Shown: positions 13,001 through 16,000 of the stretch, one piece after another | Position numbering within the stretch: position 1 is the first letter of the stretch | Layout: the number at the start of each line of letters is the position of its first letter | Assembly: GCA_903813345.2 (NCBI GenBank) | Contig: CAIIXF020000002.1 | Location: 24,318,455-24,382,454 of the forward strand | Direction: 5' to 3' | Length of the DNA stretch: 64,000 nucleotides | Source of the DNA: Owenia fusiformis | Lineage: Eukaryota > Annelida > Polychaeta > Sabellida > Oweniidae | Program-made: the position numbers and the translations under genes | The notes under the pieces: generated by a model | What the model was told of the DNA's origin: nothing | Database searches by the model: none | Seen by the model: only the letters and a program-made list of their open reading frames with translations

Positions 13001-16000
13001 TACCCATTGCACAAAATCATACAGCAGGACTAACAGGGGGGCAGATCGCATTGGTTGTACTTATACCATGCATTATATTAGTCCTTGTTGTCATAATCGC
13101 GGCTATTGCCATACGTAGAATGAAATACAAACGTCATAAGGTATTTGCATGATTTTCTGAAATTATAAGTCTATTCCTGTATGATATTTTAGATTAATAT
13201 ATTATATAACCCATATATTTTACTTCTTAATATGAAAATTTGACTTTGCCCATTGTGAAACTGCTTTATAGTTCTTGATTGATGGTTTCAAAATGGTATG
13301 CTGCCATGTATTTTTCTAATTTGTCAAAACAGTTATACAGGGTGAGGCAGATGTAACATAAAGTATGCTGCCATATATTTCTCCACTACTGGACCAATCT
13401 TCTTGAAACTTGGAACAGCAGAAGCTTTATACAGGGTGGGCCAAAAAACCACCCCCTAGCCAATATTCCTGATAGAGGGGGTGTTTTTTGGCCCACCCTG
13501 TATTTGAAGTATAAACTCAATAACTTTTAGGAAACGTTTGTACCAACTTTCAGTAGGGTCCATATAAACTGCAACCAGACATATGTTACAAATGATTAGG
13601 TACATCATAATGAATTGTAACCAATAAGAGCCAGGGTCGCTCAGAGCCTGGTTGCAGTTTGCACACCTCATTTTCAGTATTATTGAAATGTCAACATCTT
13701 GACATTACTTCTGGATCAACCTGTATAAAGATATCCCGTGAATTTTATAAAGGAGTGCTCCGATGCGTTCCATCCCCACTTTTCTATCTAGCATATTTCA
13801 TGTGATTATTGTTGGTCTCGTTCTCCAGCAAGACCTCACTGCGCTGTTATTGGCTGGCCAAGGAGACTACAATCCAGACATACCAATGGAAGAACAGACG
13901 GATAGTATAGCCTATGACCCAAGATGGGAATTTCCGAAAGAACGTCTCAATTTTGGTTAGTTTTAAACAACTGAACCTTCTCAATTATCACTTTCTAGAT
14001 TCATTGATAAAAAGGACCAAGGTTATGTTTTTTTAAAAAAGAATTTCAGCTACCTAGCTTTACATGAAAATAGAAATATTAAAACTTTTGAGATGTATGA
14101 TATGTCCTCATTTCGCCCTTGGTCAATATGGTATTTTCCTTGGTCAATATCATATTTTCCCTGGAAATAAAATTCATATTCCATCCCCCCAATTAAATAA
14201 CCTCTATTTGTTCCATAATAACATGCTTTCCCTGAAAAATAAACAGCGAATAGAATTAATATTCAAAATTCCTGTATTAAATCTGGTATCAGCCAAATTC
14301 ACATATCAGATCCCATATCAAATCTATTCTCATGGATTTCTTTTTATTTTTACATTTTTGGTTCAGCATACATAGAGGGTGTTAACAAAATCATTTGGAA
14401 CTGGTTTGGGTATACACCTTTGTTATATTATGCTTTTAGGTATGGTGTTAGGTGCAGGAGCATTTGGAAGAGTTGTCAAGGCAGATGCAGTCGGTCTGAA
14501 TGATTATGAGTCAAGCACCCCTGTAGCAGTCAAAATGGTCAAAGGTAAATGCCACTGAAATATATTAATACATGTGCAACTGACATATATAAATGATTAT
14601 GAGTCAAGCACCCCTGTAGCAGTCAAAATGGTTAAAGATAAATACCACTGAAATATATTAATACATGTGCAACTGACATATGTAAATGATTATGAGTCAA
14701 GCACCCCTGTAGCAGTCAAAATGGTCAAAGGTAAATACCACTGAAATATATTAATACATGTGCGACTGACATATGTAAATGATTATGAGTCAAGCACCCC
14801 TGTAGCAGTCAAAATGGTGAAAGATAAATATCACTGAAATATATTAATACATGTGCAACTGACATATGTAAATGACTATGAGTCAAGCACCCCCGTAGCA
14901 GTCAAAATGGTGAAAGAGAAATATCACTGAAATATATTAATACATGTGCAACTGACATATGTAAATGACTATGAGTCAAGCACCCCCGTAGCAGTCAAAA
15001 TGGTGAAAGAGAAATATCACTGAAATATATTAATACATGTGCAACTGACATATGTAAATGATTATGAGTCAAGCACCCCTGTAGCAGTCAAAATGGTCAA
15101 AGGTAAATACCACTGAAATATATTAATACATGTGCAACTGACATATGTAAATGATTATGAGTCAAGCACTCCTGTAGCAGTCAAAATGGTCAAAGGTAAA
15201 TACCACTGAAATATATTAATACATATGCAACTGACATATGTAAATGATTATGAGTCAAGCACCCCTGTAGCAGTCAAAATGGTCAAAGGTAAATACCACT
15301 GAAATATATTAATACATGTGCAAATGACATATGTAAATGATTATGAGTCAAGTACCTCTGTAGCAGTCAAAATAGTCAAAGGTAAATACCACTGAAATAT
15401 ATTAAATGTGCAACTGACATAATATGTAAATGGCATTTTAATGTGTTAATACCACTCAAATATGTAAACTATTATTCTTGATACATTTAAGTGGTATTTA
15501 CACGTTTGGAATATTTATCACACATTTGGAATACTCTCATATTTGTGGAATTGATTGTAGATTTTATTTATTTCAGATTGCACTGATTATGACCAAATGA
15601 AATCACTGATGTCAGAGCTTAAGATAATGATTCACATCGGCTCCCACCTTAATGTATTGAACCTACTTGGTGCAGTTACCAAGGACATAGCAAGTGGTAA
15701 GTGGGATTTTTGTGGTAAACTATTACAGCTCAAATAATTCAAGTGTATAGAAGATCTTTATGGAGTTCAAGGTCAAATTGAAGAAATCTGGAAAATCAAC
15801 AATTAACAAGTCAAGTTCATTTTTGGTGAAGTTTGAATTAAACTGTGGCAACATATTATATCATTTTTATATGTATACATACATTAAATGAACTGAATAT
15901 AAAATATAATGAATCAGTATGAATAAATAATGATTAGGGCCCATATTGGTTAATAAACTGTTGAGCAGAAATTATTTTTGAAAAAATCCTGTGTTTTATT

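What the first reader, a model, noticed from the sequence alone, without database searches (positions are those of the whole stretch)
14499..15428. Ten-copy 93-bp array built from an exon tail, its splice donor and intron start
The repeat unit starts inside the kinase exon and carries the codons for the ATP-binding VAVK lysine, the 5' splice donor and ~45 bp of intron. The period is exactly 93 bp (31 codons) in all ten copies. Several copies keep an intact donor, so the pre-mRNA offers many competing, identical 5' splice sites behind one acceptor-side exon. Use of a downstream donor would add in-frame stop codons. The array could therefore tune VEGFR output by copy number or produce truncated soluble receptors ending before the kinase.
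Basis: partly seen in the sequence, partly recalled or inferred. Interest (0 to 1): 0.72.

Follow-up and report, generated by a model that had tools for sequence, protein, structure and literature searches.

The report
Ten-copy minisatellite spanning a splice donor
In an animal growth-factor-receptor gene, a 93-base stretch covering the end of an exon and the start of the next intron stands ten times in a row, leaving six identical-looking splice sites; it is most likely a recent neutral repeat that the cell must splice around.

Summary
There are ten 93-bp units at 14499-15428, indel-free in copies 1-9; copy 10 has -3 and +3. Each carries 46 bp of exon (VAVKMVK codons) and 47 bp of intron of an intact VEGFR/PDGFR-type kinase gene. 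The donor GT survives in 6 of 10 copies (1, 3, 7-10).

Every donor beyond copy 1, and full retention, meets the same TGA at 14556, so copy number cannot change the protein. The stop follows the transmembrane helix, so a product would be membrane-bound, not soluble.

Most likely this is a young minisatellite founded at an AATG microhomology, with the exon-proximal donor used.

Two features go beyond that. Exonic differences among copies are mostly synonymous (6 of 8). One inverted segment (15478-15501) is complementary to the intron start of the copies (0 of 2000 shuffles as strong), as in a published docker-selector duplication model, but with donors in place of exons. Three other introns of nine also gave P of 0.03 or less in the same kind of test, and folding does not clearly favour the correct donor. 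No RNA, population or related-species data were available.

The parts
12989..13140 (+). Transmembrane exon of the receptor, upstream of the array
   Evidence: CAG acceptor, GT donor; 19-residue Kyte-Doolittle maximum 3.56 ([19 protein letters not shown]); joins in frame to exon 13829-13955
13829..13955 (+). Juxtamembrane exon (…[14 protein letters not shown])
   Evidence: frame kept across the junction; aligned to VEGFR2
14440..14544 (+). Exon with glycine loop and VAVK lysine; its last 46 bp open the array
   Evidence: TTTTAG acceptor, AAAG|GTAAAT donor; spliced frame open
14499..15428 (+). Ten-copy 93-bp array (46 bp exon tail + 47 bp intron start per unit)
14545..14546 (+). Donor GT of copy 1, the only one that keeps the reading frame open
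14556..14558 (+). TGA met by any read-through of the copy 1 donor
14638..14639 (+). Donor of copy 2, lost (reads AT); copy 4 at 14824 likewise; copies 5 and 6 at 14917 and 15010 read AG
14731..14732 (+). Donor GT of copy 3 (intact)
15103..15104 (+). Donor GT of copy 7 (intact); copies 8, 9, 10 at 15196, 15289, 15382 likewise
15440..15468 (+). Local left arm (contains a one-mismatch match to the unit's intron-start motif) of a 29-nt, 79% hairpin
15478..15506 (+). Single inverted (docking-like) arm; 15478-15501 is complementary to the intron start of the copies
   Evidence: 24 nt, 88% with copies 3 and 7-10; duplex -21.5 kcal/mol with copies 1 and 3, 0 of 2000 shuffled tails as strong; 15470-15510 pairs at -24.0 to -24.6 with 6 of 6 GT copies and -16.3 to -18.4 with 4 of 4 GT-less copies
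15577..15696 (+). Next kinase exon ([22 protein letters not shown]…), the shared acceptor
   Evidence: TTTCAG acceptor; frame kept
13829..28572 (+). Ten-exon kinase part of the receptor gene, open through to a terminal stop
   Evidence: one stop, at the end; 647 aa, PF07714 E 2.7e-86

Best explanation
A young minisatellite across an exon-intron junction. One 93-bp segment was duplicated by slippage or unequal exchange at an AATG microhomology (CTG^AATGATTATG in the exon, TGTA^AATGGCATT in the intron) and then amplified to ten units in the reference allele. The spliceosome pairs the 105-nt exon with the copy 1 donor, the only one that keeps the frame. Copies 2-10 are intronic decoys. Occasional use of a decoy, or retention, gives one and the same product: a stop at 14556, expected to be destroyed by NMD or else to give a membrane-bound receptor stub without a complete kinase. 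Shown: anatomy, frame, stop position, donor states. Inferred: which donor is used, NMD, neutrality and the founding mechanism.
For: Copies 1-9 differ from their consensus at 0-6 of 93 sites. The duplication edges share AATG. The frame spliced from the copy 1 donor is open across ten exons to a terminal stop, giving a complete kinase domain. No AG inside a unit (copy 7 examined) looks like an acceptor: pyrimidine fraction 0.40-0.53 in the 15 nt before 5 of 5 AGs, against 0.60-0.87 at 13 of 14 modelled acceptors, the exception being the tentative 8408 at 0.40. Four of nine decoy donors are already broken. The same gene holds other tandem arrays, one of which spans another putative junction (8188-8472). 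A random 93-bp segment in 13829-28572 spans a modelled junction with probability 0.11, so one such hit needs no special cause.
Against: Exonic differences are biased to synonymous ones: 6 of 8 over ten copies, 5 of 5 in copies 2-9 (P about 0.0004-0.005 by transition weight and set; post hoc). Plain neutral drift of decoys does not predict this. All intact donors have the same U1 pairing energy as copy 1, so nothing in the donor 9-mer favours copy 1. The inverted arm's complementarity to the copies was reached by 0 of 2000 shuffled tails. Of five arrays of period 30 or more in 7500-28572, 2 founding units span a junction where 0.43 were expected (P 0.06), though the expectation is too low because exons between 9018 and 12989 were not modelled.
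Confidence: 0.66

Rival explanations
1. Copy-number rheostat: the extra donors compete with copy 1, so alleles with more intact copies make more mis-spliced, prematurely stopped mRNA and less receptor (possibly with a membrane-bound decoy stub).
For: Six donors with identical U1 pairing energy, -6.8 kcal/mol, as strong as or stronger than 4 of the gene's 8 other modelled donors (range -4.5 to -12.4). All decoys give the same stop. [quoted passage not shown]
Against: No RNA or population data. Use of copy 3 needs an exon of 291 nt and of copies 7-10 exons of 663 nt and more, unfavourable for exon definition (established knowledge). Four of nine decoys are broken.
Confidence: 0.15
2. Docker-selector-like array: the single inverted arm at 15478-15501 pairs with one copy at a time and masks its donor. 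It reaches the acceptor-proximal copies and not copy 1, so it silences distal decoys and spares the correct donor, while copies 2 and 4-6 are silenced by mutation.
For: 24 nt, 88% complementarity to the intron start of copies 3 and 7-10; 0 of 2000 shuffled tails as strong, and the strongest value of the nine introns compared. Pairing of -24.0 to -24.6 kcal/mol for 6 of 6 GT copies and -16.3 to -18.4 for 4 of 4 GT-less ones. In the full ensemble the arm pairs with copy 10 (0.32) and its local arm (0.35), and with copy 1 at 0.0. All four lost donors lie in copies 2-6 (P 0.04, not independent). Of 14 motif matches in the window 12 lie in this intron.
Against: The arm has a local partner of similar strength (-22.3). 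The collapsed one-copy intron does not fold better than shuffles (z -0.37), and its arm pairs locally (0.80) and not with the donor (0.001). The favoured partner moves with the allowed span (copy 9 at span 250, copy 10 otherwise), and the copy 1 donor itself is only 0.24 unpaired at spans 150 and 250, against 0.65-0.72 at 400 and 1200, so it is not clearly spared. Weaker pairing of GT-less copies follows partly from the donor lying inside the pairing. Among the eight other introns compared, one also had 0 of 300 shuffles as strong and two more 0.02-0.03, so the test may be too lenient. No covariation could be tested.
Confidence: 0.08
3. Assembly artefact: a smaller real array, or two haplotypes, stacked into ten units.
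For: Copies 5 and 6 are identical; copies 4-6 form a variant block that could come from a second haplotype.
Against: Nine of the ten units differ in sequence and six carry private differences, which a stutter would not create.
Confidence: 0.08

Closest known systems
[quoted passage not shown] title seen in reference lists only; gene 6-16/IFI6/G1P3 and details recalled)
   Same: A tandem repeat whose units each supply a 5' splice donor next to one exon.
   Different: Here the unit is 93 bp and includes 46 bp of coding exon; extra donor use adds a stop; donor use is not shown. The 6-16 unit is much shorter (recalled).
Tandem duplication across an intron-exon boundary, potato RdRp gene (PMC4974935; abstract and passages)
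   Same: A tandem duplication that crosses an exon-intron boundary and copies splice signals.
   Different: The potato case copies the acceptor side and made a new intron. This array copies the donor side, ten units long, and has no credible acceptor inside a unit. The second array in this gene (8188-8472) is the closer parallel.
Rogers AGGT model and the fission yeast 24-bp AGGT repeats (as told in PMC4974935)
   Same: Units contain AGGT (…AAAGGTAAAT) in 6 of 10 copies.
   Different: The AG of that AGGT has no pyrimidine tract (0.40) and the unit already spans a junction, so no new intron is needed.
Docker-selector arrays made by duplicating one arm of an intronic stem-loop (PMC6071210; abstract and passages)
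   Same: One downstream arm complementary to many tandem copies of the other arm.
   Different: Copies are donor-bearing partial exons without acceptors; pairing would mask the donor and not expose an exon; mutually exclusive choice is not shown.
Soluble VEGFR forms made by intron retention or alternative 3' ends in vertebrates (recalled, no call)
   Same: A stop reached inside an intron of a VEGFR-type gene truncates the receptor.
   Different: There the stop precedes the transmembrane helix; here it follows it.

Membership tests
VEGFR/PDGFR-type receptor tyrosine kinase gene | Kinase sequence closest to VEGFR/PDGFR kinases | tested here: met
   Best PDB chain 2oh4 (VEGFR2) E 1.1e-35; PDGFRA, FLT3, KIT and CSF1R chains follow in the 60 shown of 658; PF07714 E 2.7e-86
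VEGFR/PDGFR-type receptor tyrosine kinase gene | Ig-type ectodomain and a transmembrane helix upstream | tested here: met
   1 of 3 upstream pieces scanned matched Ig families (PF07679 E 1.2e-07); 2 of 3 had no match; TM exon 12989-13140. Number of Ig domains not determined; full upstream gene not modelled
Minisatellite with multiple splice donors | Tandem units each carrying a donor consensus | tested here: met
   GT donor in 6 of 10 units, same U1 energy; lost in 4
Minisatellite with multiple splice donors | Several of the donors used in transcripts | not testable with these tools
   no RNA data held for this animal
Minisatellite with multiple splice donors | Copy number varies between individuals | not testable with these tools
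   one assembly only; no whole genome held
Intron gain by tandem duplication | Duplicate supplies a working acceptor, making a new intron | tested here: not met
   5 of 5 AGs in copy 7 lack a pyrimidine tract (0.40-0.53); other copies not scored; judged from sequence alone
Docker-selector arrays | One docking arm complementary to all copies of a selector | tested here: met
   10 of 10 copies pair, -16.3 to -24.6 kcal/mol; 0 of 2000 shuffled tails as strong for the 24-nt duplex
Docker-selector arrays | Duplicated complete alternative exons | tested here: not met
   partial exon only; no credible acceptor in the unit
Docker-selector arrays | Pairing conserved across species | not testable with these tools
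   no relatives available

The most novel reading that the evidence does not exclude
A docker-selector array of 5' splice donors. Amplifying one arm of an intronic stem made ten competing donor-bearing selectors for a single downstream docking arm. The arm masks the acceptor-proximal donors, mutation silences the middle ones, and copy number sets how well the correct donor is protected. The synonymous bias among copies would then record that units pass through the translated first position by unequal exchange, so the coding exon acts as the master copy.
Probability: 0.06. Interest if true: 0.72.

Novelty: new variant of a known kind. Interest (0 to 1): 0.42.

Why it matters
It is a natural version of a classic splicing experiment, identical duplicated 5' splice sites in front of one acceptor (experiments recalled), with a simple read-out: any wrong donor stops at the same codon. 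If copy number varies in the population, it would let proximity, exon size and RNA pairing be separated in vivo. The synonymous bias, if it holds in more alleles, would show units cycling through the coding position. If only neutral, it is an ordinary young minisatellite in an unusual place.

Tried and rejected
Soluble receptor: rejected, the transmembrane exon precedes the stop. Copy-number-dependent protein length: rejected, same stop for every decoy. Small alternative exons inside each unit (AG at unit column 31 to the donor, 15 nt): not supported, poor pyrimidine tract (copy 7 only). Second set of donors at the unit's end (TAT|GTAAAT): weak, -1.6 kcal/mol in copies 2-10, and absent from copy 1. 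Dispersed element as source of the intron motif: of 14 matches with up to 3 mismatches in the window, 12 lie in this intron and the other 2 have 3 mismatches each, 2.14 expected by chance; with the 12-base pattern 10 of 13 lie in this intron, 8.31 expected. RNA families: none at gathering threshold in the window. Viral contigs: no exact match to a 31-base piece. The organism was not determined; no collection of animal genomes was available.

Limits of the statistics. The synonymous test was devised after seeing the differences and rests on 8 events; two of the eight (columns 22 and 39, copy 10) are non-synonymous. Columns beyond 70 of copy 10 were left out of the event list because of its indels. 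A line printed, '5 of 6 without copy 10', used a wrong total; 5 of 5 is. labels column 48 'G>G' because it changes one base of the consensus codon alone; in copies 5 and 6, with column 47 changed too, the codon reads GAG. The array-versus-junction test (2 of 5, P 0.06) used 13 exons that I had located, not the exons between 9018 and 12989 nor the last one, so its expectation of 0.43 is too low.

Full report
What is there. The window holds a ten-unit direct array, 14499-15428, period 93. Each unit has 46 bp of exon (reading [15 protein letters not shown] plus one base) and 47 bp of intron. Against their consensus, copies 1-9 differ at 2, 2, 1, 3, 6, 6, 0, 2 and 1 sites, without indels. Copy 10 has three exonic substitutions and a -3/+3 pair of indels that restores the length. 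The edges share the four bases AATG, as expected if one duplication at a microhomology founded the array (inference).

The gene. Exon 14440-14544 joins in frame to 13829-13955 before it and 15577-15696 after it. A ten-exon model from 13829 to 28572 is open to a single terminal stop. It has the glycine loop, VAVK, HRD and DFG (read from the sequence; motif names recalled). Its N-lobe matches VEGFR2 best among solved structures (E 1.1e-35), with PDGFR-family kinases close behind, and Pfam finds a tyrosine kinase domain over profile positions 2-257 of 258 (E 2.7e-86). A transmembrane exon, 12989-13140, lies upstream in frame, after exons of which one scanned piece matched Ig families and two did not. 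So the gene looks functional, and the array sits at the start of the intron after the catalytic-lysine exon. The ectodomain was not fully modelled.

Donors. AAG|GTAAAT is present in copies 1, 3, 7, 8, 9 and 10; copies 2 and 4 read AAG|AT, 5 and 6 AAG|AG. Pairing energy with the U1 5' end is -6.8 kcal/mol for all six intact donors. The gene's eight other modelled donors range from -4.5 to -12.4 (four no stronger than -6.8, four stronger), and 6% of 214 GTs in 13000-17000 are at least as strong. Copy 1 therefore has no advantage in its own donor sequence. Exon size and frame favour it: only its use keeps the frame, and read-through of it meets TGA at 14556 whatever happens downstream. The exons ending at copies 3 and 7-10 would be 291, 663, 756, 849 and 942 nt (arithmetic from the coordinates).

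The anatomy was read well. The 'soluble' idea fails because the stop follows the transmembrane helix, and a length series of proteins is impossible. A dosage effect through mis-splicing remains possible but has no data behind it.

First unexplained signal. Within unit columns 1-45, 6 of 8 distinct changes are synonymous, and 5 of 5 in copies 2-9, with 0.21-0.26 expected per change. Columns 61-93 show 4 changes in copies 1-9, none at a third position. Copies lying in an intron should not show this. The likeliest cause, if it is not chance, is that units have passed through position 1, where they are translated, by unequal exchange between polymorphic alleles (inference). The test is post hoc and small.

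Second unexplained signal. One inverted segment, 15478-15501, is 88% complementary over 24 nt to the intron start of copies 3 and 7-10. Its duplex with copies 1 and 3 is -21.5 kcal/mol, with 0 of 2000 shuffled tails as strong, and all ten copies pair with 15470-15510 at -16.3 to -24.6. It also pairs with a local arm at 15440-15468. In the full ensemble it pairs with copy 10 (0.32) and its local arm (0.35), and with copy 1 at 0.0. This layout, many copies of one arm facing one copy of the other, is what Ivanov and Pervouchine propose for the origin of docker-selector arrays (PMC6071210; abstract and passages), but here the copies are donors, not exons, and pairing would hide them. All four broken donors lie among copies 2-6 (P 0.04, not independent).

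Against a role for that arm. The one-copy intron does not fold better than shuffles (z -0.37) and its arm pairs locally (0.80) and not with the donor. With limited spans the favoured partner moves between copies 9 and 10, and the copy 1 donor is only 0.24 unpaired at spans 150 and 250, against 0.72 and 0.65 at 400 and 1200. In the same donor-to-tail test of the gene's nine introns, besides this one, one had 0 of 300 shuffles as strong, two had 0.03 and 0.02, one 0.05, and four had 0.33 to 0.75; this intron's duplex is the strongest, but the test may be lenient.

Context. The same gene carries another junction-spanning duplication: 116 bp x 2.4 at 8188-8472, across the putative acceptor of exon 8408-8520. 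Use of its upstream acceptor in the exon's frame also gives a stop. That boundary is tentative, with a weak acceptor. Junction-spanning founders number 2 of 5 arrays in the gene against 0.43 expected (P 0.06), an expectation that is too low because not all exons were in the list. Duplications of tens to about a hundred bases are thus frequent here, which favours a neutral origin (inference).

Literature. Four papers were opened. PMC2572611 and PMC2915984: only reference-list passages naming the 1995 minisatellite paper; that paper itself is not held. PMC4974935: abstract and passages. PMC6071210: abstract and passages. Searches for repeats carrying splice donors or spanning exon-intron boundaries, for duplicated 5' splice sites, for intron gain by tandem duplication, for mollusc or bivalve VEGF receptor splice variants, for bivalve tandem repeats and for competing RNA structures showed, among the titles and abstract openings listed, no case of this exact kind. 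The lists were capped (20 of 194, 12 of 99, 6 of 12), one search found nothing at all, and the library misses most subscription journals, so this is no proof of absence.

Verdict. A real and accurately located array, probably a neutral young minisatellite across a splice donor, with two modest anomalies worth a cheap test. New variant of a known kind.

Noticed in passing
window 8188-8472: 116-bp x 2.4 tandem duplication across the putative acceptor side of an Ig-region exon (8408-8520, tentative) of the same gene; a second acceptor copy at 8291 would lead to a stop in the exon's frame, while another frame stays open through the copy.
   Followed up: partly
window 9025-9172: 59-bp x 2.5 array that begins 7 bp after the modelled donor of exon 8860-9018.
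   Followed up: no
window 1904-2148: 123-bp x 2 duplication that crosses the 3' end of the minus-strand ORF 2057-4444.
   Followed up: no
window 18054-19733 (-) and 23829-25007 (-): Long single ORFs for an amiloride-sensitive-type sodium channel (PF00858) and an IgGFc-binding domain protein (PF17517) on the other strand, each inside an intron of the receptor gene model.
   Followed up: partly
window 15440-15506: Short palindrome (29-nt arms, 79%) in the intron tail whose left arm holds a one-mismatch match to the array unit's intron-start motif.
   Followed up: partly
window 34173-36951, 40160-41451, 48693-49500: Several collagen-like repeat stretches (periods such as 18, 27 and 54 bp, higher GC than the surroundings), apparently coding on the minus strand; identity inferred from the repeat pattern only.
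   Followed up: no
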